Assembly (NCBI RefSeq): GCF_032108445.1
Contig: NZ_CP134876.1
Coordinates: forward strand, 6,386,001-6,450,000
Reading direction: 5' to 3'
DNA: 64,000 nt
DNA from: Micromonospora halotolerans
Lineage (GTDB): Bacteria; Actinomycetota; Actinomycetes; Mycobacteriales; Micromonosporaceae
This document shows, piece after piece, positions 4,599-22,803 of the stretch. The notes beneath the pieces are model-generated. The model did no database searches and was not told where the DNA came from. It worked only from the letters and a program-made list of their open reading frames with translations. Numbering within the stretch: the stretch's first letter is position 1; each line of letters opens with the position of its first letter. The position numbers and the translations under genes were made by a program.

Positions 4599-6290
4599 CT
4601 ACGCCGCGCCGTTGAGCGAGGCGGCCAGGGCCTCTGCGAACCCGGTGTCGGCGGGCGCGCCGCTCACGCCGATGCGCCAGGTCCCGCCCGGGAGGTCGCC
4701 CACCGGCAGTGATCGCCCGCCCGGCTGCCACAGGGGCTGCCAGGCGACCGAGCCGCTCGGCCGGTTGAACCACCGGTTGTCCTCGCTCCAGGCCGACCCG
4801 TCCCGGTAGGCAACCGCCAGTGTGGTCGTGTCGTCCGTGGCAAGCGTCCACCGGGTGAAGCCCGCCGCGTCCCCGTCGCGATCGGCGCCGGCCGGGTCCG
4901 CGAGCCGGGGCAGGGCCGAGTCGAGGTTCCAGGCTGCCTCCCAGACCGGCGCGCTGGTCGGGCCGGTCACGTGCCAGGCGAGGCCAACATCCACCGTGGT
5001 AGGTGCGAACCGGAAGCGCCAGTCGACGGTCACCGGTTCGTCGCCGAGCGGGATGCCGGCCAGGAGCACGTCCGTGCCGTCGGCCGACACGGTCACGTCG
5101 CGGGCAGCGCCGGCCGTGTCGGTGGGCCCGAAGGTGCCGACCGCGAGGTAGGGCGCCGTGGAACGGAACGACGAGTCCGTCACGGTCCGGTAGGCGCCTT
5201 GACCGGTCGGGTCGGCCTCGTAGGAGACCAGCCGGGACTCGGGCGCGGCCTGCACGACGGCCCGGTAGTAGGGCGTGCTGACCAGCCGCCCCTTCGTCAC
5301 CACCGGCGTACGCCAGTTCAGCGGTGCCAACCAGAGCCCGCCCTGACCCCAGCCGGCGCCCGTGACGTACCACTGGCCGGTGCCGGAGTCGTCCTTGACC
5401 ACCTCGGCGGCGTGCGCCTCGATCCGGCCGGCGAGCTGGTCGACGGTGAAGTGGAACGGGTCCTCGCTGCGGTACACGCGGGTGTCCTGGTAGCCGCTCT
5501 CGCAGCAGACGAAGAGATACCAGGAGCCGTCGCGGTGCACCACGAACGGCGACTCGGTCGGCCCGCCGAAGGTGCCGGTGGCCGGGTGCTCGAAGGCCGT
5601 CCGCCGGTCGCTCCAGTGCACGAGGTCACGGCTCGTGCGGTAGGCGACGATGTGGTGGCCACCGGCCGGGGTGCTGTTGGCGGTGTAGTACATGACCCAC
5701 TGGTTGCCGACGCGGGTCACCATCGGGTCCCGACCGTCGAAGCCGTCGGTGAAGAGCGGGTTGCCCGGGTGCCGCGTCCAGGTCGTCAGGTCCTTGGACG
5801 TGGCGAGGTGCATCCGGTACGCCTCGTGGTCGGCGGTGCCGCCCGCGTAGAACATGTAGTAGGTGCCGGCGTGGAACAGCACGTACGGCGCCCAGATGTG
5901 CGTCTCCCCCGCGCTCGGGTCGGCCTCAAGGGCGAACGGCTGCTTCGTCCAGGGGCCACGGGGTGACGGCGCGGTGGCATGGCCGAAGAACTTCTCGTCC
6001 AACGGGTTGGCCGGCTCGGCGTGGGTGATCGCGAAGACGTGCCACAGGCCGGTTGCACGGTCACGCACCATGGTGTGGTCGTTGTAGTACCAGCGCTCGT
6101 CCTCGCCGACGCTGGGGTCGTACACGTTCACGAACTCGCCGGCGGTGACCTGGACGGACCGGTTCTCGTACGGCTGGTTGCTCAGCGCGGCGCTGTCGGC
6201 GGCCCGGGCCGGCGCCGGGGCCACGATCAGTCCCAGGGCGAGGGCGAGCAGCGCGGACAGCCGACCGACGCGCGACGGTGGGCGGGGCAT
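4599..6290 (-). CDS. secreted five-bladed beta-propeller glycoside hydrolase (GH43/GH32-like)
   Basis: 563 residues with a Sec signal peptide (cleavage near ARA-ADS, residue 30). Residues 50-330 form a five-bladed propeller of clan F/J type. The acidic triad appears as Asp71 (YYNDHTM), Asp188 (GRDPMV, the RDP motif shared by these clans) and Glu246 (TESPFVV). Blades show repeated W/Y-rich strands such as [22 protein letters not shown]. The remaining 200 residues form a beta-sandwich that could bind sugar. Known relatives cleave furanosides (arabinofuranose or fructofuranose), which suits the neighbouring furanose-type ABC importer, GH172 and GH116 genes. The exact substrate is unknown. It is the last gene of the minus-strand operon, separated from the binding-protein gene by a strong hairpin. 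Confidence 0.7.
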
Positions 6291-6349
6291 GCGTTCCTCC
6301 AGGGGTCAACGGGTGGCGAGGGGGTGCGCCGGACGGGCGCGCGGCCGCG

Positions 6350-6382
6350 CTGGTCCGCCGCCTACCTCCGGCGGCGGACCAG
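6350..6382 (-). terminator. hairpin between binding-protein gene and glycosidase gene
   Basis: Perfect 13-bp stem (CTGGTCCGCCGCC with its complement, seven-base loop) in the 101-base gap between two genes of the same orientation. It may terminate part of the transcription or protect the abundant binding-protein mRNA. The glycosidase could then be expressed at a lower level. Confidence 0.65.
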
Positions 6383-6391
6383 CGCCCGGCC

Positions 6392-7396
6392 CTACTGCTT
6401 GCCGCCGAGGGTGGTGTAGACCTCCGCGGCGTTCTCCTTGGTGATCTGCTGGGTGCCGAGGGTGGTCGTCTTCGGGACGTCCTTGGCGCAGTCGACGAGG
6501 ATCTTCTTGGCCAGGTCGATCGCCTCACGCCCGCCGGTCGGGTACTGGAACGTCGCCTGGAGGCGGCCCTGCTCGACGGCCTTGATGCCGCCGGAGGGGA
6601 CGGGCAGCGCGTCGATCCCGGTGAACTTGATCGCGGTCTCCTTGCCGGCCGCCTTCGCCGCCAGGTAGGCGCCCTCCGCCATCGGGTCGTTGTGCGCGTA
6701 CACCGCGTCGATGTCCGGGGTCGACTTGAGCATCGCGTCCATGACGCTCTGCCCCTTCTCCCGCAGCCACTCGGCGGTCTGGCTCGCCACGATCTTGATC
6801 TTCGGGTTGCTCGCGATGCCCTCCCGGAAGCCCTGGGCGCGCTCGGCGGCCGGGGTGGAGCCGGGCAGGCCGGAGATCTCCACGACGTTGCCGCCCTGCG
6901 GCAGCAGCGTCTTCGCGTAGTACTCCCCCGCCGCCTTGCCGATCGCGACGTTGTCGCCACCGATGAAGGCCGTGTACGCGTCGCCCTCGACCTTGCGGTC
7001 CAGCACGATGACCGGGATCCCCTGGTCGTAGGCCTTCTTGACCACCGCGGTCAGCGGCTTCGCCTCGTTCGGCGAGATGATCAGCAGGTTGATGCCCTGG
7101 GAGAGGAAGTTCTCCACGTCGGCCACCTGCTTGCTGTTGTCCTGGGCCGCGTCCGAGACGACCACCTTGAAGCCGGGCACGGACTTCGCGGCGTTGCTCA
7201 CGTCGTCGTTCATGACCTGCCGGTACGGCTCGGCATTGTTGGCCTGGGACATGCCGATCAGGAAGTCCTTGCCGCTGCCGCACTTCGCCGAGGCGTCGGA
7301 GCTGCCGCTGCCGGGGTCGTCCTCGACGCTGCACGCCGAGGTGGCGACGAGCGCGGCCAGCGCCAGGATCGTGGCGGCTCTTCGGGCGTAACGCAT
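6392..7396 (-). CDS. sugar-binding lipoprotein of a ribose/galactofuranose-type ABC importer
   Basis: 334 residues. A lipoprotein signal ends in ATSAC with Cys22 as the lipidation site, so the protein is anchored on the outer face of the membrane. The mature part is a type-I periplasmic-binding fold: KDFLIGMSQANNAEPYRQVMND, then the SQGINLLIISPNEAKPLT hinge, VIVLDRKVEGD, and GSTPAAERAQGFREGI, which resembles the GSxPAxxRxxGF segment of the E. coli galactofuranose binder YtfQ. The C-terminal FTGIDALPVPSGGIKAVEQGR matches the second lobe. Together with the permease and double ATPase upstream it should import a pentose or furanose released by the secreted hydrolases. D-arabinose is my inference. 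The gene lies 23 bases after the permease. Confidence 0.8.
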   Translation of the reverse strand: MRYARRAATILALAALVATSACSVEDDPGSGSSDASAKCGSGKDFLIGMSQANNAEPYRQVMNDDVSNAAKSVPGFKVVVSDAAQDNSKQVADVENFLSQGINLLIISPNEAKPLTAVVKKAYDQGIPVIVLDRKVEGDAYTAFIGGDNVAIGKAAGEYYAKTLLPQGGNVVEISGLPGSTPAAERAQGFREGIASNPKIKIVASQTAEWLREKGQSVMDAMLKSTPDIDAVYAHNDPMAEGAYLAAKAAGKETAIKFTGIDALPVPSGGIKAVEQGRLQATFQYPTGGREAIDLAKKILVDCAKDVPKTTTLGTQQITKENAAEVYTTLGGKQ

Positions 7397-7419
7397 GGTT
7401 TCCTCCAGTGGGTGGTGGG

Positions 7420-8484
7420 TCAGGCGATGCGGGGACGGAGCTTCTGCAGCGCGGCGGCAGCCACGATGACCAGGCCCTTGACGACCAGCTGCACGTTCGC
7501 GTCGATGTTGTTGAGGGCGAGGATGTTGTTGAGGATCCCGAGCAGCAGGGCGCCGGCGATGGTGCCGCCCATGGATCCACTGCCACCGGCAAGGCTCGTC
7601 CCGCCGATGACCACGGCCGCGATCGCGTCCAGTTCGTAGCCGGCGCCGTCGTTCGGGCTGCCCTGGTTGAGCTGCCCGGCGTGGATGATCCCGGCCAGCG
7701 CGGCGAGCAGGCCGGAGATCGCGAACACGGTGATGCGGACACGGCGCACCGGCACCCCGGACAGCCGGGCGGCCTTCTCGTTGCCGCCGATGGCGTACAC
7801 GTGCCGGGCGAAGGCCGTGCTGCGCAGCACCAGCAGCGCGCCGACGCCGATGGCGAGGAACAGCAGCGCCGGCACCGGGAGGACTCCGTTGATGGACCCG
7901 CTCAGCGTCGAGAACGCCTCCGGGGCCTCCTGCGGCCCGTCACCGTAGGCGATGGGGATGCCTAGGCCGCCGGACCACATCCGGGCGATGCCCCGGGCCG
8001 CCTGCAGGCCGGCGAGGGTGACGATGAACGACTGGATGCCGAGCCGGGCGACGATCGCACCCTGGGTGGCGCCGAACGCGGTGCCGATGAGCAGCACGAT
8101 CAGGACCGTCGGGAGGATGCCCATGCCGCTGTCGACCATCAGGGTGGCGGACCCGACCGCGGCGAGCCCGAGCACCGCCCCGACGGAGAGGTCGATGCCG
8201 CCGATCAGGATCACGAACGTCATCCCGACCGCGATGATGCCGATCTCCGAGACCGCCCGGACGATGTTGGCGAGGTTCCCGGAGCTGAGGAAGACGCTCT
8301 CGCCGTTGCGGACGGGCGACACGGCGATCGCGATGATGAAGACGGCGGCCAGGCCGAACAGGCTCTGGAAGCGGAAGAAGCTGTCGACGATCGCGTGCCG
8401 GTCCCGCGGCAGCCGGATCGGCCCGCGGCGGGGCGGCGTCTCGCGCGGCGCTTCGGCGACGGAGGTGGGGTTGGGCGAGTTCAT
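7420..8484 (-). CDS. RbsC-family sugar ABC permease
   Basis: 354 residues with a polar 35-residue N-terminus and about ten transmembrane helices. The family signature is clear: GIIAVGMTFVILIGGIDLSVGAVLGL, the AIGGNEKAARLSGVPVRR cytoplasmic coupling loop, and ELDAIAAVVIGGTSLAGGSGS near the end. One polypeptide presumably forms the homodimeric membrane channel of the importer. Its ATG overlaps the stop of the ATPase gene (ATGA), so the two are translationally coupled. Confidence 0.85.
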   Translation of the reverse strand: MNSPNPTSVAEAPRETPPRRGPIRLPRDRHAIVDSFFRFQSLFGLAAVFIIAIAVSPVRNGESVFLSSGNLANIVRAVSEIGIIAVGMTFVILIGGIDLSVGAVLGLAAVGSATLMVDSGMGILPTVLIVLLIGTAFGATQGAIVARLGIQSFIVTLAGLQAARGIARMWSGGLGIPIAYGDGPQEAPEAFSTLSGSINGVLPVPALLFLAIGVGALLVLRSTAFARHVYAIGGNEKAARLSGVPVRRVRITVFAISGLLAALAGIIHAGQLNQGSPNDGAGYELDAIAAVVIGGTSLAGGSGSMGGTIAGALLLGILNNILALNNIDANVQLVVKGLVIVAAAALQKLRPRIA

Positions 8485-10019
8485 CGGGCCTCCTTGGCAT
8501 CGTCCCCGTTGGCCGCGGCGAGGATCGCTTGTTGGGTGGCGGACGCGCGGGGCAGCGCGGCCACGGTGTGACCGCGGTGCAGGACGACCACCCGGTCACA
8601 GAGGCTGAGCAGCTCGGGCAGTTCGGACGAGGCGAGCAGGATCGCCATGCCGGTGTCGGCGAGCTGGTGCAGCAGCCGGTAGATCTCGGCCTTGGCCCCG
8701 ATGTCGACGCCTCTGGTGGGCTCGTCGAGCAGCAGCAGCCGCGGTCGCGTCAGCAGTTGCTTGGCGAAGACGATCTTCTGCTGGTTGCCGCCGGAGAGCG
8801 TGGCGGTGGCGACCGCGGGCGAGGCGGCCTTCACCGCCAGGGCGCTGAGCTGCCCGGCCACCGTCCGCTTCACCGCCTGCCGGCGTACGAGGCCGAGCGT
8901 CGTCAGTGTCGACAGCGCGGAGAGCACGACGTTGTCGGCCACCGAGTGCTCGAGCATGAGTCCGGCGCCGCGCCGGTCCTCGGGGACGAACGCCACCCCG
9001 CGCGCCAGGGCCGACCGTGGGCCGTGCGGACGGTACGGACGGCCGTCGAACGTCACCTGGCCGGCGCGGCGGCCGGAGCCGCCGGCGCCGAAGAGCGTCT
9101 CGAGCAGTTCGGTGCGGCCCGCGCCCATCAGCCCGGCGAGTCCGACGATCTCGCCGGAACGCACCGTGAGGTCGACACCGGCCGGCTCGGTCCGCCCGGG
9201 CGTCGGCCGGCGTGGCGCCACGGCGAGTCCACGGACGTCGAGCAGCACGTCCCCGGGCTCGTTGCGACCCTCGCCGTAGAGCGCGTCGACCGACCGGCCG
9301 ACCATCAGCTGGATGATGTCGTCGCGGGAGGCGGTCTTCGGGTCGACGCTGCCCGCGATGCCGCCGTTGCGCAGCACGGTGACCCGGTCCGCGACGACCT
9401 CGATCTCCGCCATCCGGTGCGAGATGTAGACGATGCCGACGCCGGCCCGACGCAGCTCGGCGATCGTCGCGAAGAGGCGTTCGACCTCGGCGTCCGCCAG
9501 GGCGGCGGTCGGCTCGTCCATGATCAGCACCCGCGCGTTCAGCGACAGGGCCCGGCCGATCTCGACCAGTTGCTGCTCGCCGACGCGCAACGACCCGACG
9601 AGCCGCCGCGGTTCGAGGTCGGCGCCGAGCGTACGCAGGTGGTCGGTGGCCTGCCGGCGCATCCGCCGGAGGTCGACGGTGCCCATCCGGGTGCGCGGCT
9701 CGCGGCCGAGGAACATGTTCTCCGCGATGGAGAGCCCGCCCACCAGGTCCAGCTCCTGGTGGATCGTCGCGATGCCGGCGCGTTGGGCGTCGGACGGGCC
9801 GGCGAAGCTCACCGGCTGCCCCTCCAGCTCGATGGCGCCGTCGTACTCGGTGATCACGCCGGAGAGGATGTTGATCAGTGTCGACTTGCCGGCGCCGTTC
9901 TCGCCGAGCAGCGCGTGCACCTCACCCGCCCGGACGGTGAGGTCGATGTCGCGGCAGGCGTGCACACCGCCGAACCGTTTGCCGATGCCGGTCATCCGGA
10001 CCAGCGGGCGTTCTGTCAT
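8481..10019 (-). CDS. double-domain sugar ABC importer ATPase (RbsA/YtfR type)
   Basis: 512 residues containing two fused nucleotide-binding domains. Domain 1 has the Walker A GENGAGKST (residues 39-47), signature LRVGEQQ and Walker B VLIMDEP. Domain 2 has a degenerate P-loop (GLMGAGRTE), as is normal for this family, with a canonical LSGGNQQ signature and LLLLDEPTRGVD. The start at 10019 (MTERPLV) is supported by GAGGTG eight bases upstream; the frame is open further but without sense. It is the first transporter gene after GH172, with a strong hairpin between the two. Confidence 0.85.
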   Translation of the reverse strand: MTERPLVRMTGIGKRFGGVHACRDIDLTVRAGEVHALLGENGAGKSTLINILSGVITEYDGAIELEGQPVSFAGPSDAQRAGIATIHQELDLVGGLSIAENMFLGREPRTRMGTVDLRRMRRQATDHLRTLGADLEPRRLVGSLRVGEQQLVEIGRALSLNARVLIMDEPTAALADAEVERLFATIAELRRAGVGIVYISHRMAEIEVVADRVTVLRNGGIAGSVDPKTASRDDIIQLMVGRSVDALYGEGRNEPGDVLLDVRGLAVAPRRPTPGRTEPAGVDLTVRSGEIVGLAGLMGAGRTELLETLFGAGGSGRRAGQVTFDGRPYRPHGPRSALARGVAFVPEDRRGAGLMLEHSVADNVVLSALSTLTTLGLVRRQAVKRTVAGQLSALAVKAASPAVATATLSGGNQQKIVFAKQLLTRPRLLLLDEPTRGVDIGAKAEIYRLLHQLADTGMAILLASSELPELLSLCDRVVVLHRGHTVAALPRASATQQAILAAANGDDAKEAR

Positions 10020-10061
10020 GCGGCACCTCGTCAGTCGTCTGCGGGTCTGCTGCGGGTCGGG

Positions 10062-10100
10062 CCGGAGCCGCCGGGCCCGCTGCGGGCCCGGCGGCTCCGG
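10062..10100 (-). terminator. 18-bp perfect hairpin between GH172 and the importer genes
   Basis: CCGGAGCCGCCGGGCCCG pairs with its exact complement across a three-base loop. It stands directly after the GH172 stop (10105) and 43 bases before the ATPase start, so any transcript from the GH172 promoter must pass it to express the importer. No promoter is obvious in the 43 bases, which favours partial read-through. Confidence 0.7.
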
Positions 10101-10104
10101 TCGG

Positions 10105-13100
10105 TCACGAGACGAGCCGCGCCTCGACATAGTCGAGCCCGGCCAGGTAGCCGACCGCCGCGGCGGCCTTGCCGGTCACGGTGAGCGTGAGCGTGTGCCG
10201 GCCCGCCGTCAGCTCCCGCTGGCCGTAGTCGAGCGGGTCGCTCACGACCACCTCCGGCGAGTGGTACGCGTCGAAGGCCGGCCCGACCCGGGCACCGTCG
10301 ATCGCCACCGTGTTGGTGCCGTAGTCCCGGGCCAGCGTCTGCACGAGGCGCAGGTCGTAGGTCCCGGTGGTGGGCACGGTGAAGTTGACGGTGACGCTCT
10401 GGTTCGGCCCGTTCGCGTGGAACCACAGCTGCGCGCTCTGCGACCAGTGGATGCCGCAGCAGTCGCTCTGCGGGTCGGCCGGCGCGTCGGCGCTGACCGC
10501 GGGCAGGAGCGATTCGCCCTCGATCCGCAGCGTGTCACCGGTGGTGGCCGAGGCGGTCGGCGAGTACGGGCTGGCGTTGCCGGCCGCATCCACGGCGCGT
10601 ACCCGGTAGTACCAGGTCTCGCGCAGCCCCAGACCCGCGTGCTCGAAGCTCGGGCGGGTCGTGGTGCCGACGCGGTTGCCCGGTCCCGGCGTGAAGTCCG
10701 CCTGGCGGGAGGCGAACACCTCGTACCGGGGGGCGTAGACGTCGTCCGCGGCCGGCTGCCAGGTCAGCGTCACGGCGTTGGTCGTGCCGCTGGTGGCGGT
10801 GAGCCCGCTGACCGCGCCCGGCCGCTGGTGGTCGGTGAACGGCGTGACCAGGCTGAGCACCGCGTACCGGGCCGCGGACCAGGCCGGAGCGCCGGCGGTG
10901 GGCGTCAGGGTGACGGTCACCGCGTCCCTGCCGCGGGTGAGCGCGGCCGGGACCCGGTACTCGTCCTCCAGCCACCGGTGCGACGCGTTGGCCAGCGGCT
11001 GCGACCAGATGCCGGCGTCGTGCCCGTCGACACCGACCGCCACCGACTGGTACCCGGCCGACTGGTCGCCGACCCGGCGTAGGACCGCGCCCGCGTTGTC
11101 CTCGTCGAGGGTCACCCGGAACCGGATCGGCTCGCTGGAGGCGCGGACGTCGTCGGTCACCGGTCGGGGCGCGCCGTCGTCGCCTTCGAAAGTCGCCGTG
11201 AGCACCGTCCGGTCGCCGCCGGAGGCGTACTGGTGGGCCGTCTCGCTGGCGGAGTCGCCCACGTCGACCGTGTCCGTCCAGCGCTGCCCGAGGGTGTCCT
11301 GGCCGTACCAGTACGCCGTGGAGCCGTACCGGGCCGGGTCCTGGTCGCCCGGGCCGTGCTCGATGCCGAACCGCAGTCCGGTCGAGAACGCCACCGACTC
11401 CGCGAGCATGAGCCGGTACGCCCCGGTGCAGTCGTACCGGCAGCCGTAGTCGGCGATCTCGTGGGCCGGGTTGCCGTTCATGGGCGCGGAGAAGGTGCCG
11501 TGGTTGAAGTACCAGCCGCTCTCGTAGAAGTCCTCGGTGCCGGTGCCGTGGATGCTCGGGCTCTGCGCGCCGTCCACGTACACCCGCTCGTCACCCTCGA
11601 GGTAGTTGCGCTGGTTACCGGCGGGGATGTGCCCCTCCATGGTGTGGGTGACCCCCACGAACTTCCCCCGTCCGGCGACGTCGAGGAAGAGGTGGTCCGC
11701 TCCCGGCGTGGTGTCGGCGCTGGTCGCGGTCGCCCGGAAGTAGCCGGTGTCGCCGGTCGGCCGCAGGGCCGCCGCCCAGCGGGCGGAGCGCTCGGTGGTC
11801 ACGGTGGCCACCGACGGTTTGATCGCCACGTCGGACCCGTTGCGCAGCTCGATCGACCAGCGCGACCGGTAGGGCATCGGCCACCAGGCCGACAGGGTCG
11901 CGGTCGCGGGGTCGACGCCGAACATCAGGGACCGGACGGCGTGCAGCCCGAGGCCCGTGCCGAAGAACTCGCCGAGCGGGGCGTCCACCGTGGTCTTTCC
12001 GTCGAACGAGATGCGCAGCCGGGTGTCACGCAGCACCGCGTCGGACGCGGCGACGGCCGCCTTGCGCTCGTCGTCGGACGGGTAGGAGGAGGTGTTGCTG
12101 CCCTGCCAGGTCTGCGCGGTGATCCGGTAGCCGTGCGCCGCCTCGACGTCGGTGTGCGCCGGGCCCAGGTCGACGGTGTCGGTGCGCTTCGCGGTGCCGG
12201 CGACGAGGCTGTCGACCCAGTAGGTGAACTCGTTGACGTCGAGGTCGGACGAGATGAACTCGTTGCGGATGGTCAGCTTCGTCTTGCCGGCCGTGGCGCT
12301 CGCCGGCAGTTCGACGCTCTGGTCCAGCCAGGTGCCGAACGGCACCGGGTCGTTGGCCGGCCACTCGGCGACCGGTGCTCCGTCGACCAGGATCCGCGCC
12401 CGCTGGTGCCCGATGTGCGGGTCGAGCCGGCGGGTGAGCCGTACGCCGGTGTTGGCCGGGTCGACGGCGACGGTGAACTCGCTGCCGCCGCCGGCACCGA
12501 AGGCGCGGCCGTCGTCGGCGATCGGCTGGGGCGCGCCGACGAGCTGGGGAATCTTCAGCTGGAGTGCGGTGATCGCGCCGGGGCCCACGCCACTGGCGAG
12601 GGTGGCCCGACCGCCCGCGGGGACGGCGAAGGTGCGCTCGGCCGTCGCGGCGCCCGGCTGGGCGGGCTTGGGGTCGCGGGTGCCGGCGGCCTTGAGCTGC
12701 GCGATGACGTCCTCGGCCCGGTCGGTGGGGTCGAAGGTGCGGACGCCGTCCGAGGTGGTGAACTTCCGGTAGGAGACGTGGTGGAAGATCGGGTTCTTCT
12801 CGGTGGTGACCCGCATCGAGCTGCGGTAGGTCATCGGCGCCTTGATGTAGACGCCCCCGGAGCTCTGCGCCGCGTTGGCGACCACCGGGTAGACGAAGGG
12901 GGCACCGAGCTTGCCGTCCACGACATCCTGGAGCTTGGCGTCGAGCACGGTCTGTCCGTCGAGGACGACCGTGATTTTGCCCGTGGCGGAGACGTTGCCC
13001 TCGTCGCGGGTGAACCAGATGGAGTCGATCTCGCCGGCGCCGGTGGCCTCGGCGATGACGCAGCCGTCGGCGCTGGTGCGCAGGCAGGAGTACTGGCCGG

Positions 13101-13356: not shown

Positions 13357-13409
13357 GAATCGCCTTTCCACATCGGTGGGTGGGGCGGGTCGTGATATGC
13401 GGCAGACAA

Positions 13410-13421
13410 GGAATCGATTTC
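13410..13421. promoter_or_regulatory. predicted LacI operator, GH172 side
   Basis: GGAATCGATTTC, or GAAATCGATTCC on the other strand, with the central CG typical of LacI-family sites. It falls about ten bases after the predicted transcription start of GH172. The same 12-mer, with one or two changes, recurs at 13554 and 22819. Confidence 0.7.
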
Positions 13422-13438
13422 TCGCTGCGGTTGCGATC

Positions 13439-13537: not shown

Positions 13538-13553
13538 CCTCGATCAGAACCGA

Positions 13554-13565
13554 GCAAACGATTTC
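13554..13565. promoter_or_regulatory. predicted LacI operator, GTPase-GH116 side
   Basis: GCAAACGATTTC, or GAAATCGTTTGC on the other strand. It shares the longer run CGATTTCTCGCT with the site at 13410 and lies at about +10 to +21 of the predicted transcript. Confidence 0.65.
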
Positions 13566-13616
13566 TCGCTCACAAAAGCGCACCGCGGCCCCGCGGCGCG
13601 CGGGGAGGGGGCAGCC

Positions 13617-14714: not shown

Positions 14715-17700
14715 ATGGCAGAGCATCCGTACGACCAGTGCTGTCCCGGCAACGCCTGCGGCCCGAACCGCCGGCAGTTCCTCACCCTCTCCCTCGGGCT
14801 CACCGCCGGCACCGTGCTCGTCGGCTCCCGGGCCGAAGCCGCCGCTGCCCTCGGCGTACCCGAGGATCGGCTGATCGGCGTACCGGTCGACAAGGCGCTG
14901 CCGCCCGACTGGTCCGCGGCGCTGTACCGCCGGGGCGAGCCCACCAGCTACGCCGGCACCGACCTCCGCTGGCTCGGCATGCCGGTCGGGGGTGGCGCCA
15001 CCGGCCAGCTGTACCTCGGCGGCGACGGGCGGCTGTGGAACTGGGACATCTTCAACCGACCGGCGGCCGGCACCACCGACGTCGGGTACGCGAGCCCACG
15101 GCAGCCCGCCTCGCCCGTCCGGCACGGTTTCGCGCTGCGGACCCGGTCCGGCGGGCGGGTCCAGACCCGCGCGCTCGACGCCACCGGCTTCGACCAGGTG
15201 CGGTTCACCGGGCAGTACCCCATCGGCACGGTCCGGTACTCAGCCGCCGACGCTCCGGTCGAGGTGACTCTGGAGGGGTTCTCGCCGTTCGTACCGCTGT
15301 CGGTCGCGGACTCGACGCTGCCGGCGACCGTGCTGGTCTACACGCTGCGCAACACGTCGCACGCAACGGTGGACGCGACGCTGCTCGGCTACGTCGAGAA
15401 TCCGGTCTGCCTGGACACCAGGACGCAGCGCGGGATCACGCTGCGGTCGACGGCGTTCGGCGACCGGTCGCTGCGCGGAGTCCGGTTCTCGGCCGCCGAG
15501 CAGACCGAGACGGCCGACCGCCCCGACGTCGTCTTCGAGGACTGGGAGCGGGACACCTACGAGGGCTGGACCGTCGAGGGCAGCGCCTTCGGCGCCGGCC
15601 CGGTGCTGGTCTCCGAGATACCGGACTACATGAAGGGCGGCGGGCCGCTCAACGCGACCGGACAGCGACTCGTCACCTCGCACGACTTCCGCGGGGCCGA
15701 CGGCGACATCGGCCGGGCCGACGCGCCGACCGGCAAGCTCACCAGCGCCCCGTTCACGGTCTCGCGCAAGTCGATCCGGCTGTCCATCGGCGGCGGCAAC
15801 CACCCCGGCCAGACCTGCGTCAACGTGCTCGTCGACGGCGCGGTGGTCGCCACGGCGACCGGCCGCAACGCCGAGGCGATGCACAGCGTCTACCTGGACG
15901 TCGCCGCACACGAGGGGAAGTCCGCGGTCATCGAGATCGTCGACGCCCACACCGGCGGGTGGGGGCACGTCAACGTCGACCGGATCGTGTTCACCGACGT
16001 GGCGCCCCGCCCGGAGATCGTGTTCGAGGACTGGGAGCGCGAGACCTACGACGGCTGGACCGTCGAGGGCACCGCGTTCGGCGCGGGCCCGGTGCAGGTC
16101 TCCGCGGTGCCCGACTACATGAAGCGCTTCGGCGATCTCGGCGCGTCGGGGCAGCGGTTCGTGACCTCGCACGACTTCCGCGGCTCCGGCGGTGACACGG
16201 GCCGGGCCGACGCCGCCACCGGCAAGCTGACCAGCCGGCCGTTCACCGTCGAGCGCCGCTACGTCAACGTGGCCGTGGGCGGCGGGAGCCACCGCGGCAG
16301 CACCTGCGTCAACCTCCTGGTGGACGGCGCCCTGGTGGCCAGCGTGGCCGGCCGCGACGCGGAGCCGGTCAGCGTGGCGACGATGAACGCCTCCGCGTAC
16401 CAGGGGCGCACGGCGGTGATCGAGATCGTGGACGCGGACACCGGCGGGTGGGGGCACGTCAACGTCGACCGCATCGTGTTCAGCGACGTGCCGACGGACA
16501 CCCGGCCGCTGGACCAGGTGCCCGACAACGGCACGCTCGTCCTCGCCGCGCTCGACGGTCGGGCGGTGACGCGTCCGTCGCTCGCCGGGTGGGACAGCCT
16601 CGACGAGGTGTTCGCGGCGGAGGCCGGCCCCACGGAGGTGGACGGCTCGCTGGCCGGGCAGGCCGGATCGGTGAGCGTGGCGGTCCGCCTCGCGCCCGGC
16701 CAGAGCCGCACCGTGCGATTCGTGCTCGGCTGGCACTTCCCCGTGCCGGACCGCGTTTCGCTGGGCTTCCTGCGCGGCTCGGACAGCCTGCGCCGGCACT
16801 ACGCGACCCGGTTCGCCGACGCCCGCGCGGTGGTGGAACACGTCGCCCACGACCTCGACCGGCTGGAGGCCGACACCCGCACCTGGGTGCAGACCTGGTA
16901 CGCCGACGCGACCCTGCCGCACTGGTTCCTGGAGCGCACCCTGGCACCCGCGTCGACGCTCGCCACCAACACCTGCTACCTGTTCGACGACGGCCGGTTC
17001 TACGGCTGGGAGGGCGTGTACTGCTGCCCGGGCACCTGTGAGCACGTGTGGAACTACGCCCAGTCCATCGCCCGGCTCTTCCCCCAGCTGGAACGCGACA
17101 CCCGCGGCAGGGTGGACCTCGGCATCGGATTCCACCCGGACACGGGCCAGATCGGCAACCGCGCCGAGGCCGACATGGGCTGGGCCACCGACGGGCAGTG
17201 CGGGACGATCCTGCGCTGCTACCGGGAACACCTCACCGCGCCGGACGACACCTACCTGCGGGTGAACTGGCCCCGGCTGCGGCGCGCGCTGGAGTGGATC
17301 ATGGAACACGACGTGGGCCCGGACGGCACGCTCGACGGCCCGCAGCCGAACACGCTCGACACCACCTGGTACGGAAAGATCGCCTGGATCACCGGGATGT
17401 ACGTCGCGGCACTGCGAGCGGGCGCGGCGATGGCCGACGAGGTGGGCCAGCCCGAGTTCGCCGACCGGTGCCGGGTCCTCGCCGATTCCGGCAGCCGGTA
17501 CCTGTCCACGGAACTCTTCAACGGCGAGTACTTCATCCAGGAGGTCGACCCGGCCCACGCCGATGCGATCAACAGCAATCGGGGGTGCCACATCGACCAG
17601 CTCTTCGGGCAGAGCCTCGCCGGTCAGCTCGGGCTCCCCCGCGTCGTGCCGGCGGAGCAGGCCGTGAGCGCCCTGGAGAGCCTCTACCGGTACAACTTCA

Positions 17701-18398
17701 CGCCCGACCACGCCGGCTACCGGGAGGACAGCGTCATCCCGGGCGGCCGCTGGTTCGCGATGGACCACGAGTACGGCATGCTGATGACCACCTGGCCGCA
17801 CGGTGGCGCCGACACCGCGGCCGGGAACCCGGCGAGCTGGGCCGCGATGTATTTCAACGAGGTGTGGACGGGCCAGGAGTACCAGGTCGCGGCACAGATG
17901 CTCCAGGAGGGCCTGGTCGAGGAAGGGCTCACTCTCACCCGGGCGGTGCACGACCGGTACGCCGCGGGCAAGCGCAACCCGTACAACGAGATCGAGTGCG
18001 GCGACCACTACGCCCGGGCCATGGCCAGCCACGGTGTCTACCTCGCGGCGTGCGGGTTCGAGTACCACGGCCCCCGCGGCCACATCGGGTTCGCGCCCCG
18101 GATCAGCCTCGACAGGTTCGCCGCCGCATTCACCGCGGCGGAGGGGTGGGGCCTGTTCCAGCAGGAGCGCCACGGCGGGCACCTCACCGGCACCGTCGAG
18201 GTCCGGTACGGCCGCCTGCGGGTATCCAGCATCGCCCTGGCGGTGACGCGTTCCCCGGCACGGGTGACGGTACGTCTGGGCAATCGCACTCTGCCGGTGC
18301 GTGACTGGTCGTGCCGGGACGGGCGCATTCTCGTTACCTTGGACGCCGAGGTCGTGGTCGGTCGGGGAGACACCATCCAGGTGATGCTCAACGGCTGA
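14715..18398 (+). CDS. Tat-exported GH116-family glycoside hydrolase with two inserted repeat modules
   Basis: 1227 residues. A twin-arginine signal (NRRQFLTLSLGL, Arg19-Arg20) predicts folded export. The GH116 N-terminal beta domain begins near residue 80 (LRWLGMPVGGGATGQLYL) and resumes after two tandem modules of about 160 residues each (about 271-430 and 433-595), both starting FEDWER and ending GGWGHVNVDRIVF. The alpha-barrel catalytic domain spans about 700-1180, with TCEHVWNYAQS, NTLDTTWYGK (candidate acid/base Asp) and the family-typical RNPYNEIECGDHYARAMASHG. GH116 includes beta-glucosidases and an exo-beta-D-arabinofuranosidase that trims mycobacterial arabinan; the GH172 neighbour favours the latter. 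AGGAG lies five bases before ATG 14715. Confidence 0.8.
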   Translation: MAEHPYDQCCPGNACGPNRRQFLTLSLGLTAGTVLVGSRAEAAAALGVPEDRLIGVPVDKALPPDWSAALYRRGEPTSYAGTDLRWLGMPVGGGATGQLYLGGDGRLWNWDIFNRPAAGTTDVGYASPRQPASPVRHGFALRTRSGGRVQTRALDATGFDQVRFTGQYPIGTVRYSAADAPVEVTLEGFSPFVPLSVADSTLPATVLVYTLRNTSHATVDATLLGYVENPVCLDTRTQRGITLRSTAFGDRSLRGVRFSAAEQTETADRPDVVFEDWERDTYEGWTVEGSAFGAGPVLVSEIPDYMKGGGPLNATGQRLVTSHDFRGADGDIGRADAPTGKLTSAPFTVSRKSIRLSIGGGNHPGQTCVNVLVDGAVVATATGRNAEAMHSVYLDVAAHEGKSAVIEIVDAHTGGWGHVNVDRIVFTDVAPRPEIVFEDWERETYDGWTVEGTAFGAGPVQVSAVPDYMKRFGDLGASGQRFVTSHDFRGSGGDTGRADAATGKLTSRPFTVERRYVNVAVGGGSHRGSTCVNLLVDGALVASVAGRDAEPVSVATMNASAYQGRTAVIEIVDADTGGWGHVNVDRIVFSDVPTDTRPLDQVPDNGTLVLAALDGRAVTRPSLAGWDSLDEVFAAEAGPTEVDGSLAGQAGSVSVAVRLAPGQSRTVRFVLGWHFPVPDRVSLGFLRGSDSLRRHYATRFADARAVVEHVAHDLDRLEADTRTWVQTWYADATLPHWFLERTLAPASTLATNTCYLFDDGRFYGWEGVYCCPGTCEHVWNYAQSIARLFPQLERDTRGRVDLGIGFHPDTGQIGNRAEADMGWATDGQCGTILRCYREHLTAPDDTYLRVNWPRLRRALEWIMEHDVGPDGTLDGPQPNTLDTTWYGKIAWITGMYVAALRAGAAMADEVGQPEFADRCRVLADSGSRYLSTELFNGEYFIQEVDPAHADAINSNRGCHIDQLFGQSLAGQLGLPRVVPAEQAVSALESLYRYNFTPDHAGYREDSVIPGGRWFAMDHEYGMLMTTWPHGGADTAAGNPASWAAMYFNEVWTGQEYQVAAQMLQEGLVEEGLTLTRAVHDRYAAGKRNPYNEIECGDHYARAMASHGVYLAACGFEYHGPRGHIGFAPRISLDRFAAAFTAAEGWGLFQQERHGGHLTGTVEVRYGRLRVSSIALAVTRSPARVTVRLGNRTLPVRDWSCRDGRILVTLDAEVVVGRGDTIQVMLNG

Positions 18399-18405
18399 AC
18401 GTGTC

Positions 18406-18435
18406 GGCGCTCGACACGGCACCGTGTCGAGCGCC
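18406..18435 (+). terminator. hairpin after GH116
   Basis: GGCGCTCGACACGG and its exact complement separated by two bases, starting eight bases after the GH116 stop. A strong 14-bp stem without a T-run. Confidence 0.7.
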
Positions 18436-18487: not shown

Positions 18488-18511
18488 CCCCGCACCGACG
18501 AGGGTGCGGGG
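18488..18511 (+). promoter_or_regulatory. hairpin in the leader of the lacI-type gene
   Basis: CCCCGCACC pairs with GGTGCGGGG around a six-base loop, about 55 bases before the start codon. It could be a weak attenuator or an mRNA-stability element. No riboswitch class is recognised. Confidence 0.35.
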
Positions 18512-18565
18512 ATCGGGCACCCGTTCTCGGGCTTGTCATCGTAGGAATCCACCGGATGGAGGCGA

Positions 18566-19564
18566 ATGGCGACGATCTACGACGTGGCACGGCAGGCTCA
18601 GGTCTCCCCCGCGACGGTCTCGCGGGTGCTGAACGGCCGCACCACCGTCGATCCAGTCATGGCCGCGCGCGTGCACCAGGCGATGCAGGACCTCGACTAC
18701 CGCCCCAACGCGGTCGCCCGCAACCTGCGCCTGAGCCAGACCAGCCTCTGGGCGGTCATCATCTCCGACATCGGCAACCCCTTCTTCACCTCCATGGTGC
18801 GTGGGGTCGAGGACGTCGCGCAGAGCGCCGGCTACTCGGTGGTCCTGTGCAACACCGACGAGGACCCGGAGAAGGAGTCCCGGTACATCGCGGCGGTCCT
18901 CGCCGAACGGATGGCCGGCGTCATCATCTCCACGTCGGGCCGCTCGACGGTGATCAACCGGCTCCTCGAGGCCCGCATCCCGGTCGTGGCGATCGACCGC
19001 CAACTGCGCGGCGTCACCATCGACACGGTGCTCGTCGACAACGTGCACGGTGCCGGGCTGGCGACCACGCACCTGCTCGACAACGGCTACCAGCGGGTCG
19101 CCTGCATCACCGGCCCGCGCCGGATCTCCACGGCCGCCCAGCGGCTCCGGGGCTACCAGCGCGCGCTGCGGGAACGCGGACAGGAGGTCACCGACGCCCT
19201 CGTGCGGTACGCGGACTTCCGCGAGGAGGGCGGCTACCGGGCCATGGCCTCGCTGCTCGACAGCGACAACCCGCCCGACAGCGTCTTCGCCACGAACAAC
19301 CTGATGACCGTGGGCGCCGTGGAATGCCTCGTCGACCGCGGCATTCGGGTGCCGGACGAGGTCGGGGTCGTCGGATTCGACGACATTCCGTGGGCACACC
19401 TGGTCCGGCCGTCGTTGAGCACCGTGTCCCAGCCGACGTACGACCTCGGACGCGCCGCCGCCGGCCTGCTCACCGAGCGGATCGCCAACCCGTCGCGGCT
19501 GCCGTCGACCGTCACGCTCAGCACCGGGCTCCAGGTGCGCGACAGCTCCACCCGCCCGAGCTGA
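18566..19564 (+). CDS. LacI-family regulator of the furanoside locus
   Basis: 332 residues. The N-terminal helix-turn-helix is canonical (IYDVARQAQVSPATVSRVLNG), followed by the hinge helix region (DYRPNAVARNLR) and a periplasmic-binding-like effector domain (VVAIDRQLRGV, ITGPRRISTAAQRLRGYQ, VGFDDIPWAHLVRPSLSTV). GGAGG lies six bases before the ATG. It is placed between the GH116 operon and the convergent kinase-isomerase operon, so it is the natural candidate to bind the three GAAATCGWTTSC sites upstream of the catabolic operons. The likely inducer is a released pentose or a phosphorylated product. Confidence 0.85.
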   Translation: MATIYDVARQAQVSPATVSRVLNGRTTVDPVMAARVHQAMQDLDYRPNAVARNLRLSQTSLWAVIISDIGNPFFTSMVRGVEDVAQSAGYSVVLCNTDEDPEKESRYIAAVLAERMAGVIISTSGRSTVINRLLEARIPVVAIDRQLRGVTIDTVLVDNVHGAGLATTHLLDNGYQRVACITGPRRISTAAQRLRGYQRALRERGQEVTDALVRYADFREEGGYRAMASLLDSDNPPDSVFATNNLMTVGAVECLVDRGIRVPDEVGVVGFDDIPWAHLVRPSLSTVSQPTYDLGRAAAGLLTERIANPSRLPSTVTLSTGLQVRDSSTRPS

Positions 19565-19633: not shown

Positions 19634-21268
19634 TCAGAGGTTGACGTCGCCGCAGAGGTGCACCTGGACGCCGAGTTCGGCGAACATCGCGGCCTTCACC
19701 CGCAGTGTCCGGTCGGCGGTCTCCGCGTCCGGCGCGTAGGCGACGTTCACGTGGTTGGCCTTGTGGCGGGCCATCAGCTGGTCGCGACCGACCCCGTGCA
19801 GCACGGCATGCATGATCGGCCACTGCGGGTTCGTGGCCTCCAGCCGGCGCCGGGTCTCCTCCTCCGGAAGCTCGACGACGGTCGCGCGGCCGAGGTCGAC
19901 GTGCAGCCCGCCGTCCATGATGAACACCCGGGACCAGACGATCTCGCCCGGCTTGGAGACCCCGCTCAGGGTGCCGCCGCCGAGCGGGAAGAACATCGGC
20001 GGCTGCCGCATGCTGTACGACTTGTCGTACCCGCCGTTGTGCGACGCCGGCACCGAGCCGGAGATCTCGAACGCCCAGACGAAGTCGTCGCCGTAGGTCT
20101 CCCCCCACCGGATGTCGTGCAGGGTGGTGGCCGGGTCGAGGCCCATGGCGGTCCAGATGCGGTTGGTGACCAACGAGTCGACGGCCACCCCCTCGTCGAC
20201 CTCGTTGAAGTGCGGCAGCGGCGCGCCCGCGTAGAGTTCGCGGCTGCCGTCGCGGCTGCGTACCGGTGGCCGCTGGACGTTGTTGAGCAGCCCCTCGGCC
20301 AGGTCGCTGGCCGGGACGGTGTCCTTCAGTCCCTGCTGGTACTGAATGCCGACCGCGTCGAGGCCGAAGTCGTCCGCGATGCGCAGAGCGGCGATGTACA
20401 TCTTGAACTGGCTCGTCAGCTGGGCGTCGGTGAGCTCGGTCGCCTCGTCGGTGCCGGTGTGGAAGGTCATCCCGGCCTCGTCCAGCCAGCGGCGGACCGC
20501 GTGGGCCTCCTCGTCGGAGACCCGTGCCATCTCGGCGACCAGCGCGCTCTGCGACAGCCGCTCCTTGTAGATGCCCAGCGGGTTGATCAGTTCGTCGTCG
20601 AAGATCGCGTTGTACATCCCCATGCAGCCCTCGTCGAAGACGCCGATGATGGCCTTCTCCCGGGCCAGCTGCGCGGCCAGGGCGCGACCGAGCTCGACCT
20701 CCGGGTCGTCCGGCAGGGTGGACAGATCGCGGACGTGACTGGTGTCGTGGCGCAGCTCGCCGGTCTCCAGCCAGGTGCGCAGCCCGTTGACCGCCCAGTC
20801 GTCGGTGAAGTCCCGGCTCCACAGCGCGGAGTGCCGCACGCCCGCCTTGGTGAGGCTCGCGGTGAGGTTGAGCAGGCCGACCAGGCCCGGGAACTCGCCG
20901 CTCCAGTTGGCCACGATGAGGATCGGTCCCCGGTGGCTGCGCAGGCCGGCCAGGACGTGGTGGCTGTACTGCCAGACCGCCTCGACCACGATGAGCGGCG
21001 CGTCGACCGGGATGCTCTTGAAGACCTCGATCCCGGCCCGCTGGCTGTCGATGAACCCGTGGCCCTTGTCCGGGTCGAACGCGTGGCCGCGCTCGACCTT
21101 CCAGCCGAGCGCGTTGACCGCAGTCGTGAGGTCGGCCTCCAGTTGCTGCTGCGTGGGCCAGCACGTGACGTTCGCGCGGGGCCGGAGATCGCCACTGGCC
21201 ACCGTGTAGACGGTGCCGGGCGCCGCGACGGGCGGCTCGGCCAGCACGGGCAGCGGGTAACGGGTCAT
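19634..21268 (-). CDS. L-fucose/D-arabinose isomerase-family aldose isomerase
   Basis: 544 residues, cytosolic. The sequence fits the FucI-like superfamily: an N-terminal Rossmann-like domain (APLIVVEAVWQYSHHVLAGLRS, GPILIVANWSGEFPGLVGLLN), the central FDEGCMGMYNAIFDDELI with a candidate metal-binding Glu, and a C-terminal block with RHKANHVNVAY, whose His is a candidate metal ligand. Members use Mn2+ and interconvert L-fucose/L-fuculose or D-arabinose/D-ribulose. No fuculose-phosphate aldolase is encoded here, which favours D-arabinose, since D-ribulose 5-phosphate needs no aldolase. The ATG at 21268 overlaps the kinase stop (ATGA), so the pair is coupled. Confidence 0.7.
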   Translation of the reverse strand: MTRYPLPVLAEPPVAAPGTVYTVASGDLRPRANVTCWPTQQQLEADLTTAVNALGWKVERGHAFDPDKGHGFIDSQRAGIEVFKSIPVDAPLIVVEAVWQYSHHVLAGLRSHRGPILIVANWSGEFPGLVGLLNLTASLTKAGVRHSALWSRDFTDDWAVNGLRTWLETGELRHDTSHVRDLSTLPDDPEVELGRALAAQLAREKAIIGVFDEGCMGMYNAIFDDELINPLGIYKERLSQSALVAEMARVSDEEAHAVRRWLDEAGMTFHTGTDEATELTDAQLTSQFKMYIAALRIADDFGLDAVGIQYQQGLKDTVPASDLAEGLLNNVQRPPVRSRDGSRELYAGAPLPHFNEVDEGVAVDSLVTNRIWTAMGLDPATTLHDIRWGETYGDDFVWAFEISGSVPASHNGGYDKSYSMRQPPMFFPLGGGTLSGVSKPGEIVWSRVFIMDGGLHVDLGRATVVELPEEETRRRLEATNPQWPIMHAVLHGVGRDQLMARHKANHVNVAYAPDAETADRTLRVKAAMFAELGVQVHLCGDVNL

Positions 21269-22803
21269 GGGGCGACTCCTTCGGTGCGTGGGGTGTCGCT
21301 GGCCGCCGGCGGGCCGGCGGCCATCAGACGGTCCTGACGTGCAGCGAGCGCGTGCGCGACCCGCTTGGAACTCGTGTACAGCTCCCGGTACAGCTCGTAG
21401 AGCTCGTCGTAGTCCGCGGCCAACTCGGCCCGGGGCTGCCGGATCTCCTTGACGGGGTTCCACGCCTCGATCGAGACGGGCCACCCGGTCCGCGCGGCGA
21501 GGAACGCCGCTCCGTAGCTCGCGCCGATCGTCTGCGACGGAATGACCTGGGCACGCCCGGTGACGTCCGAGACGATCTGGGTCCACAGCCCGCCCTGGGT
21601 GCCGCCGCCGACCGCCACGACCCGTCGGATGTCACCACCGCTCGCCTCGATCGTCTCGATGTTGTGGCGTACGCCGAGCGCGGTCGCTTCGAGCGCGGCG
21701 CGGTACAGGTCCCCGCGCGTGTGCGAGACGGTGAGGCCGGCGACGAAGCCACGGGCTCGCGGATCCAGGATGGGCGTGCGCTCCCCCGCGAAGTACGGGA
21801 GCATGAGCAGCCCCTTCGCGCCCGGGCCGGAGGCCTCGGCCAGCCGGAGCAGCTCGGGATAGTCCGGTGAGCCGAACAGCTCGCGGAGCCACGCCGTGAT
21901 CGCGCCCGAGGTGGCCAGGCCGCCGGCGAGGTTCCGCGTCCCGGGCAGGGCGCCGACCGTGCCCCACAGCGACGGGTTCGTCAGGCGGGCCGTGACGGTG
22001 TGGACGAGGAACATGGTGGTGCCGTACATCAGCATCAGGTCGTTGACGCCCTGGGCGCCCACGCTGATCGCCTCCGACCAGGCGTCGATGGTGCCCGTGA
22101 TCACCGGGACACCCGCCGGCAGGCCGGCCTCCGCCGCCGCGCGCGACGTCACCGTCCCGGCCACCTCGCCGGGCCAGCGCAGCGGTGGCAGGACCAGGTC
22201 GGGTGCGATCTCCGTGGCCCACAGCGCGTACCAGTCCTGGCCCTCGGTGTCGTAGAGCGGTGTGCACTGGCTCGCCGAGTGCTGATCGAGCACGTAGTGG
22301 TCGGTGAGTTTCCACGCGAGCCACGAGCTGGGCATGAAGAGCCGTCGGGCCCGGGCGAAGAGTTCCGGTTCGTTGTCGGCCACCCAGGCCACCTTGGCGC
22401 CCGCCGCCTGGCTGGACAGCGCCGAGCCGCACCGACGCAGGATCTCCTCCGCGCCGAACCGCTCGGTGAGGCGGGCGATCTGCTCCGTCGAGCGGGTGTC
22501 GACGCCGTAGAGGATGGCGGGGCGCAGCGGGGTGTTCGCGGCGTCCGTGAGCAGCACGCACGGACCCATGCCGCTCACCCCGACGGCGACGACGTCGACG
22601 TCGCCCGGTGCGAGGAGCTCCCGGCTGAGCGCGACGAACTCCCGCCACCAGACGTCGGCGTCCATCTCCACCCAGCCCGGTCGCGGGCGGCTCACCTCGT
22701 GCGACCGGGTCGCCGAGCGAACGACCCGGCCGTCGGTGTCGACGAGGACGCCCTTGCTGCTCGATGTGCCGATGTCCACGCCCAGGACGGCCGCAACCTT
22801 CAT
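21265..22803 (-). CDS. FGGY-family pentulose kinase (predicted D-ribulokinase)
   Basis: 512 residues. The ribonuclease-H-like ATPase fold is evident: GVDIGTSSSKGVLVDTDG at the N-terminus (phosphate 1), GTIDAWSEAISVGA with the candidate catalytic Asp, and GGGTQGGLWTQIVSDVTGR near the C-terminus (the second FGGY signature). The family phosphorylates xylulose, ribulose, fuculose and related ketoses. Coupling to an aldose isomerase downstream makes a two-step route aldose to ketose to ketose phosphate. Which pentulose cannot be read from sequence; D-ribulose is inferred from the locus. An operator copy lies 16 bases before the ATG. Confidence 0.75.
   Translation of the reverse strand: MKVAAVLGVDIGTSSSKGVLVDTDGRVVRSATRSHEVSRPRPGWVEMDADVWWREFVALSRELLAPGDVDVVAVGVSGMGPCVLLTDAANTPLRPAILYGVDTRSTEQIARLTERFGAEEILRRCGSALSSQAAGAKVAWVADNEPELFARARRLFMPSSWLAWKLTDHYVLDQHSASQCTPLYDTEGQDWYALWATEIAPDLVLPPLRWPGEVAGTVTSRAAAEAGLPAGVPVITGTIDAWSEAISVGAQGVNDLMLMYGTTMFLVHTVTARLTNPSLWGTVGALPGTRNLAGGLATSGAITAWLRELFGSPDYPELLRLAEASGPGAKGLLMLPYFAGERTPILDPRARGFVAGLTVSHTRGDLYRAALEATALGVRHNIETIEASGGDIRRVVAVGGGTQGGLWTQIVSDVTGRAQVIPSQTIGASYGAAFLAARTGWPVSIEAWNPVKEIRQPRAELAADYDELYELYRELYTSSKRVAHALAARQDRLMAAGPPAASDTPRTEGVAP

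What the first reader, a model, noticed from the sequence alone, without database searches (positions are those of the whole stretch)
4599..22803. Candidate D-arabinan / D-arabinofuranoside utilisation locus
One 18-kb block contains GH172 and GH116 enzymes, a third furanosidase-type propeller enzyme, a furanose-type ABC importer, a LacI regulator, an FGGY kinase and an L-fucose-isomerase-family enzyme. Exo-alpha- and exo-beta-D-arabinofuranosidases that dismantle mycobacterial arabinogalactan and lipoarabinomannan were recently placed in GH172 and GH116. D-arabinose isomerised to D-ribulose and phosphorylated needs no aldolase, and none is present. The gene set therefore gives a complete predicted path from arabinan ends to D-ribulose 5-phosphate. 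No endo-D-arabinanase (GH183/DUF4185) is visible, so it may depend on another organism or another locus.
Basis: partly seen in the sequence, partly recalled or inferred. Interest (0 to 1): 0.9.

Follow-up and report, generated by a model that had tools for sequence, protein, structure and literature searches.

The report
Secreted D-arabinan scavenging gene cluster
A soil Micromonospora carries a gene cluster that very probably strips D-arabinose off the cell-wall arabinan of other bacteria outside the cell and then imports and metabolises the sugar, using an enzyme pairing not found in the papers searched here and including one enzyme type of untested function.

Summary
The D-arabinofuranoside reading survives the sequence tests made: active-site residues of GH116 and GH172, FucI metal ligands in the isomerase, close isomerase and kinase relatives inside GH183/GH172/GH116 D-arabinan clusters, and a LacI-type operator core, GAAATCGWT, found four times in the window, all before these genes, and in 13 of 13 short-GH172 loci that hold GH183. 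Yet the locus is not the published D-arabinan PUL: the genome has no GH183, the GH172 is a long clade, the importer is a monosaccharide (CUT2) type, and a GH43/GH32-like propeller enzyme is present. That enzyme's 34 full-length relatives all have the long GH172 beside them, fused in nine, though only 8 of 20 long-GH172 loci have it. Best reading: a GH183-free variant that frees D-arabinose outside the cell and imports the monomer; the propeller enzyme is the leading candidate for a second exo-beta-D-arabinofuranosidase type. Nothing has been assayed.

The parts
4599..6290 (-). GH43/GH32-like enzyme ('GH43L') with Sec-like signal (by eye): five-bladed propeller plus C-terminal beta-sandwich; D71, R187-D188, E246 invariant; candidate exo-beta-D-arabinofuranosidase
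   Evidence: function inferred
6392..7396 (-). CUT2-type sugar-binding protein (RbsB/YtfQ-like)
7420..8484 (-). CUT2-type ABC permease
8481..10130 (-). CUT2-type ABC ATPase (two ABC stretches; true start may be near 9995)
10105..13356 (-). Long GH172 (1083 aa, Sec-like signal by eye): N-terminal part with a weak match to the start of GH172, catalytic double jelly-roll within about 230-687 (E587, E608, Y616), beta-sandwich, FN3, C-terminal carbohydrate-binding-like domain
13405..13426 (.). LacI-type operator 1 (core GAAATCGAT at 13413-13421, - strand)
13549..13570 (.). LacI-type operator 2 (core GAAATCGTT at 13557-13565, - strand)
13617..14699 (+). COG0523/CobW-type GTPase (accessory, travels with GH116; role unknown)
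14715..18398 (+). GH116 with Tat-like signal (by eye) and a CBM35-like insert; residues E766, H777, R816, D882 match ExoMA2 E431, H446, R483, D557
18406..18435 (+). Inverted repeat after GH116, read by eye as terminator-like
   Evidence: sequence
18566..19564 (+). LacI-family repressor
19634..21268 (-). FucI-superfamily isomerase, predicted D-arabinose to D-ribulose; E356, D385, H506 match FucI metal ligands
21265..22803 (-). FGGY (XylB-like) kinase, predicted D-ribulokinase
22822..22830 (-). LacI-type operator 3, just upstream of the kinase
22952..22960 (+). LacI-type operator 4, upstream of the kinase

Best explanation
A D-arabinofuranoside (D-arabinan) scavenging locus of a variant kind that does not use GH183. 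Secreted exo-enzymes take D-arabinan ends apart outside the cell: the long GH172 removes alpha-D-Araf, and the GH43/GH32-like propeller enzyme (plus, in this strain, a secreted GH116) removes the beta-D-Araf caps. Free D-arabinose enters through the CUT2 monosaccharide ABC importer, is isomerised to D-ribulose by the FucI-superfamily enzyme and phosphorylated by the FGGY kinase to D-ribulose 5-phosphate (pentose phosphate pathway). The LacI repressor binds paired GAAATCGWT operators before both transcription units and is released by a pathway sugar. Shown by sequence: gene content, family residues, linkage, operator-like sites. Inferred: all activities, secretion, inducer, transport and kinase specificity. 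The beta-activity of the propeller enzyme is the least certain step (about 0.45).
Against: No activity, growth or transcript data. The long GH172 is distant from every GH172 with a solved structure (80.3 bits or less); the assayed enzyme described with 1.5 DUF2961 domains (DgGH172b) was weak (PMC10115798, passages). In the Micromonosporaceae draw only 8 of 20 long-GH172 regions hold GH43L, 4 of 20 the isomerase and none GH183. The isomerase also occurs away from any glycosidase (L045), and relatives at 84-85% identity are listed from many Streptomyces. Nine of nine Kribbella genomes with the GH172/GH43L pair lack this isomerase. 29 of 45 more distant GH43L loci have no GH172 nearby. The kinase scores best as xylulokinase. 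The operator pattern was derived from this locus before it was counted, and many of the loci counted are related. Importer specificity cannot be told from sequence.
Confidence: 0.8

Rival explanations
1. A difructose-dianhydride / alpha-fructofuranoside utilisation operon: GH172 cuts alpha-D-Fruf, the GH32-like enzyme cuts beta-D-Fruf, and the ABC importer brings in the sugar, as in Bifidobacterium dentium.
For: The B. dentium operon also has LacI, GH32, DUF2961 and an ABC importer (PMC8605356, passages); GH43L's best structural matches include GH32 levanases and it hits PF00251.
Against: The specificity residue is Tyr, not Gly; the three Gly-type GH172 loci fetched (L030, L031, L035) carry no operator match, though neither do four Asn-type loci without GH183 or isomerase (L026, L027, L033, L034); fructose needs no isomerase, yet the isomerase is linked to GH183/GH116 clusters; the GH116 is ExoMA2-like.
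Confidence: 0.07
2. A plant L-arabinan or other L-arabinofuranoside locus: GH43-like L-arabinosidase, L-arabinose import, L-arabinose isomerase and L-ribulokinase.
For: GH43 arabinanases are among the weak sequence matches of GH43L; the kinase scores on ribulokinase models, under cut-off.
Against: No gene of the block is an L-ribulose-5-phosphate epimerase (not searched genome-wide); the isomerase aligns to FucI (AraA was fetched but not compared); GH172 and GH116 residues are those of D-Araf enzymes; the operator is shared with GH183 clusters.
Confidence: 0.04
3. A D-arabinofuranoside locus as in the best explanation, but with GH43L as an endo-D-arabinanase standing in for GH183 rather than an exo-beta-enzyme.
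Against: Exo- and endo-acting GH32, GH43, GH117 and BT0996 structures all lie within a few Z units; an endo-enzyme would yield oligosaccharides, whereas the importer is of the monosaccharide CUT2 type, unlike the SBP_bac_8 importers of the published PUL and of a canonical relative; without GH116 something must still remove beta-caps, and G116 and G127 lack GH116 and GH183.
Confidence: 0.2
4. Same sugar, other target: D-Araf on non-mycobacterial glycans, or turnover of the cell's own wall sugars.
For: alpha-D-Araf is also reported in Pseudomonas pilins and Stenotrophomonas O-antigen (PMC8605356, passages); an MptB-like mannosyltransferase lies next door.
Against: No Emb-type arabinosyltransferase in the genome, with the control ringing in C. 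glutamicum; amidase and FG-GAP genes accompany relatives' loci, which suggests attack on whole cell walls.
Confidence: 0.15

Closest known systems
D-arabinan PUL of Microbacterium arabinogalactanolyticum (Shimokawa et al. 2023, PMC10509167; sections 9 and 10 read, other passages)
   Same: GH172 and GH116 exo-enzymes, ABC importer, isomerase and kinase feeding D-ribulose 5-phosphate
   Different: There: four GH183, no signal sequence on the exo-enzymes, SBP_bac_8-type importer. Here: no GH183, signal sequences (by eye) on GH172, GH116 and GH43L, CUT2 monosaccharide-type importer, long GH172, extra GH43/GH32-like enzyme, COG0523 gene
Dysgonomonas gadei PUL42 and its GH172 enzymes (Al-Jourani et al. 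2023, PMC10115798; passages)
   Same: [quoted passage not shown] DgGH172b is described with 1.5 DUF2961 domains, which may resemble the long GH172 here
   Different: Bacteroidota PUL with GH183; no GH43L mentioned in the passages seen
Bifidobacterium dentium DFA I operon (Kashima et al. 2021, PMC8605356; passages)
   Same: LacI, GH172, GH32-type enzyme, ABC importer
   Different: Fructose substrate, Gly at the specificity position, no isomerase, kinase or GH116 named in the passages, enzymes thought intracellular
GH183-containing clusters of Micromonosporaceae (L029/L053, L036-L040, L049-L052)
   Same: Isomerase 78-81% identical in 10 of 10, kinase 64-69% in 9 of 10, LacI 47-49%; same operator core
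   Different: Short GH172 with Asn, GH183 present, CUT1-type importer where seen (8 of 10; checked by Pfam in L036), GH116 37-41% identical

Membership tests
GH172 (DUF2961) | Pfam DUF2961 domain over cut-off | tested here: met
   217.4 bits, cut-off 27
GH172 (DUF2961) | Two catalytic glutamates (alphaFFase1 E270/E291, DgGH172c E233/E254) | tested here: met
   E587 and E608 in the alignments, invariant in 34 of 34 rows. E233/E254 from PMC10115798; E270/E291 recalled and consistent with the chain numbering
GH172 exo-alpha-D-arabinofuranosidase | Non-Gly residue blocking the fructose hydroxymethyl (ExoMA1 N253 against alphaFFase1 G299) | tested here: met
   Tyr616; Tyr in 21 of 21 long enzymes; rationale from PMC10509167 section 9. 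That Tyr acts like Asn is inferred
GH172 exo-alpha-D-arabinofuranosidase | Hydrolysis of alpha-D-Araf | not testable with these tools
   needs assay
GH116, ExoMA2-type (subfamily 4 of PMC10509167) | Nucleophile, acid/base, His446 and Arg483 equivalents | tested here: met
   E766, D882, H777, R816 in the multiple alignment; the pairwise alignment had put Ile against Arg483
GH116, ExoMA2-type (subfamily 4 of PMC10509167) | Placement in the subfamily tree | tested here: inconclusive
   only by score: ExoMA2 258.8 bits against 73.2 or less for others; no tree built
GH183 (DUF4185) endo-D-arabinanase | DUF4185 domain anywhere in the genome | tested here: not met
   no match in G000 while 74 of 150 genomes match, 59 over cut-off
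Published D-arabinan PUL type | GH183 + GH172 + GH116 + isomerase + kinase in one cluster | tested here: not met
   GH183 lacking; the rest present
FucI-type isomerase | Mn2+ ligands Glu337, Asp361, His528 | tested here: met
   hhalign of a 36-row profile (19 rows kept by the program) to E. coli FucI, 97.4% probability, ligands aligned to E356, D385, H506; a 10-row profile gave nothing (1.9%); ligands from PMC6894278
FucI-type isomerase | D-arabinose as substrate | not testable with these tools
   needs assay
GH43 | PF04616 over cut-off and triad D/D/E | tested here: met
   55.1 bits; D71, D188, E246 invariant in 42 of 42 rows; triad assignment recalled, partly seen
GH32 | PF00251 over cut-off and RDP motif | tested here: met
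   46.2 bits; R187-D188-P189 invariant; motif meaning recalled. Meeting both GH43 and GH32 signs leaves the CAZy family open
GH137 (BT0996 domain) | Clear sequence and fold relation | tested here: inconclusive
   [not shown]
CUT2 importer specific for furanoses (YtfQ type) | Score over the YtfQ equivalog cut-off | tested here: not met
   147.6 of 510 bits; RbsB 155.5 of 337

The most novel reading that the evidence does not exclude
The GH43/GH32-like partner of the long GH172 founds a new family of secreted exo-beta-D-arabinofuranosidases. [quoted passage not shown] Together with the long GH172, sometimes as one fused polypeptide, it takes mycobacterial-type arabinan apart without GH183 or GH116, and GH116 has been lost from some clusters because it is redundant.
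Probability: 0.4. Interest if true: 0.78.

Novelty: new variant of a known kind. Interest (0 to 1): 0.62.

Why it matters
D-arabinan is the signature polymer of mycobacterial and corynebacterial walls and few enzymes that cut it are known. A GH183-free route with a GH172/GH43L enzyme pair, fused in nine relatives, offers a second toolkit for cutting lipoarabinomannan and arabinogalactan, and probably a family of untested specificity. The shared operator gives a way to find further members of the D-arabinan regulon in actinobacteria.

Tried and rejected
Isomerase against PDB by sequence: nothing at E <= 1. A shallow hhalign to FucI failed; only the deeper profile worked. L-arabinose isomerase was fetched but not compared. 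Pairwise phmmer suggested GH116 had lost ExoMA2's Arg483; the 23-row alignment restores it by spacing. I first took GH116-COG0523 as a recent insertion because three close relatives lack it. One search shows 79 bases of the GH116 3' end plus the first bases of the COG0523 gene left in L007, and a weaker trace in L006, so deletion is the better reading, at least for L007. I called GH43L the constant partner of the long GH172 in a draft; one search shows this holds only one way (8 of 20 long-GH172 regions have GH43L). I expected GH172/GH43L genomes to lack GH116 and GH183 generally: not so. Of 14 named genomes that I picked from the 80, 10 have GH116 and 13 some DUF4185 match. Of the 5 among them with the isomerase, N. 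endophytica, Isoptericola and Ornithinimicrobium lack GH116 and have no or only a partial DUF4185 match. One further site in the genome with the operator core and a matching tail (6269000, L139) lies by a sigma-factor-like and a sialidase-like frame (by eye); I treat it as unrelated; the other three outside sites (L136-L138) were not looked into. Paper searches for a GH43- or GH32-type D-arabinofuranosidase or a D-arabinan LacI operator showed none in their listings (open-access library only). Fold absences: no family is excluded.
Full report
WHAT IS THERE. The window is from a Micromonospora chromosome of 6.96 Mb (genus from isomerase relatives at 97-99% identity). On the minus strand lie GH172 (start near 13356), ABC ATPase, permease, binding protein and a GH43/GH32-like enzyme (4599-13356), and further right kinase and isomerase (19634-22803). 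On the plus strand lie a COG0523/CobW-type GTPase, GH116 and LacI (13617-19564). An IS4/5-family transposase follows at 23854-24816.

LINKAGE. In a draw of 150 Micromonosporaceae genomes, DUF2961 occurs in 38, DUF4185 in 74 (59 over cut-off), GH116 in 23 and the isomerase in 25. By my tally of those tables, 21 genomes (own included) have the isomerase at 70% identity or more; 16 of 21 have GH116 within about 12 kb on the same contig, and 10 of 21 have GH116, short GH172 and GH183 all in that cluster. Of the 23 genomes with GH116, 17 have that isomerase and 6 do not. In the ten full clusters, the kinase is found in 9, LacI in 10 and a CUT1-type binding protein in 8 (importer checked by Pfam in L036). 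Against this, one Micromonospora (L045) has isomerase and kinase with no glycosidase seen nearby.

THE VARIANT. In the named loci L056-L064, L082 and L088, COG0523 is seen in 6 (L056, L058, L060, L062, L063, L064), GH116 beside it in 5 of these (L063 is cut by its contig), and both are lacking between GH172 and LacI in 5 (L057, L059, L061, L082, L088). L057, L059 and L061 are the same places as L008, L007 and L006. L007 keeps the 3' end of GH116 as a 79-base relic, so loss is likely there. G116 and G127 have no GH116 and no GH183 match anywhere; G138 lacks GH116 but has GH183 elsewhere.

COUNTER-EVIDENCE FROM OTHER GENERA. Of 14 named genomes with the pair that I chose from the 80, 5 have the isomerase (3 Nakamurella, Isoptericola, Ornithinimicrobium) and 9 of 9 Kribbella do not. 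GH116 is present in 10 of 14, DUF4185 in some form in 13 of 14. So the pair is not tied to this isomerase and does not generally replace GH116 or GH183. The clean cases are G116 and G127 above and, outside Micromonospora, N. endophytica, I. cucumis and O. cavernae, which have no GH116 and no full-length DUF4185 match; completeness of these last three is not told.

REGULATION. GAAATCGWT occurs 4 times in the window (0.12 expected), twice between GH172 and COG0523 and twice before the kinase. With its tail it occurs 8 times in the genome, 4 of them here; reversed control 0. In 124 loci (seven overlapping or duplicate loci dropped) there are 190 raw matches against 10.5 expected and 3 reversed; 133 of 145 merged sites are noncoding although 19% of the sequence is, and 130 of 145 lie within -30 to 350 bases of a called start, of GH172, LacI, kinase, GH116, GH183, importer or unassigned genes. 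By locus, it is in 13 of 13 short-GH172 loci with GH183, 4 of 12 without (none of three Gly-type, but also none of four Asn-type without GH183), 16 of 20 long-GH172 loci and 11 of 11 Kribbella loci. The pattern was found in this locus first, and relatedness inflates the counts.

LOCALISATION AND TARGET. Signal sequences on GH43L, GH172 (Sec-like) and GH116 (Tat-like) are read by eye. Together with a CUT2 importer they point to extracellular monomer release, unlike the exo-enzymes without signal and the SBP_bac_8 importer of the Microbacterium PUL. The genome has no Emb arabinosyltransferase, so the arabinan is probably foreign. FG-GAP genes stand in 14 and amidase genes in 8 of the 20 long-GH172 regions.

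VERDICT. The locus is a new variant of a known kind; its untested propeller enzyme is what deserves bench work.

Noticed in passing
window 13617-14699 and L056, L058, L060, L062, L063, L064: A COG0523/CobW-type GTPase travels with GH116; why a metallochaperone-like GTPase accompanies a glycosidase is unexplained.
   Followed up: partly
L007 near 7890-7968, L006 near 12023-12350: Leftover stretches of the GH116 3' end between GH172 and LacI in relatives without GH116 suggest loss by deletion (clear in L007, weaker in L006).
   Followed up: partly
window 1729-3471: MptB-like alpha-1,6-mannosyltransferase (236 bits, cut-off 40) beside the locus.
   Followed up: no
L029, L018, L014 and others of L006-L025: FG-GAP proteins and Amidase_2/FG-GAP proteins stand by D-arabinan-type loci (Pfam-scanned in L029, L018 and, FG-GAP only, L014); in L018, L025, L032 and L055 members of that cluster follow a LacI 70-74% identical to the window's.
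   Followed up: partly
L045: Isomerase (82%), kinase (51%) and LacI with an SBP_bac_1-type importer but no glycosidase seen, and operator matches before LacI and between LacI and kinase: perhaps a D-arabinose-only locus.
   Followed up: no
L066-L075, L087 (Kribbella): GH172/GH43L pair or fusion with the operator core in 11 of 11 loci, but no relative of this isomerase in the nine genomes searched; how D-arabinose would be metabolised is open.
   Followed up: partly
L077 (Micromonospora sp. U21), L063 and L080 (M. acroterricola): These strains seem to hold a second long-GH172/GH43L pair next to the kinase end of the locus.
   Followed up: no
window 26251-28101: Two frames pair a peptidase-inhibitor I36 domain with SpoIID or NlpC/P60 domains (the NlpC/P60 match is below cut-off).
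   Followed up: no
window 60937-61584: Beta-lactamase2 domain hit on the minus strand in a 575-aa open frame (found by a mistaken query).
   Followed up: no
window 23854-24816: IS4/5-family transposase at the right edge of the locus.
   Followed up: no
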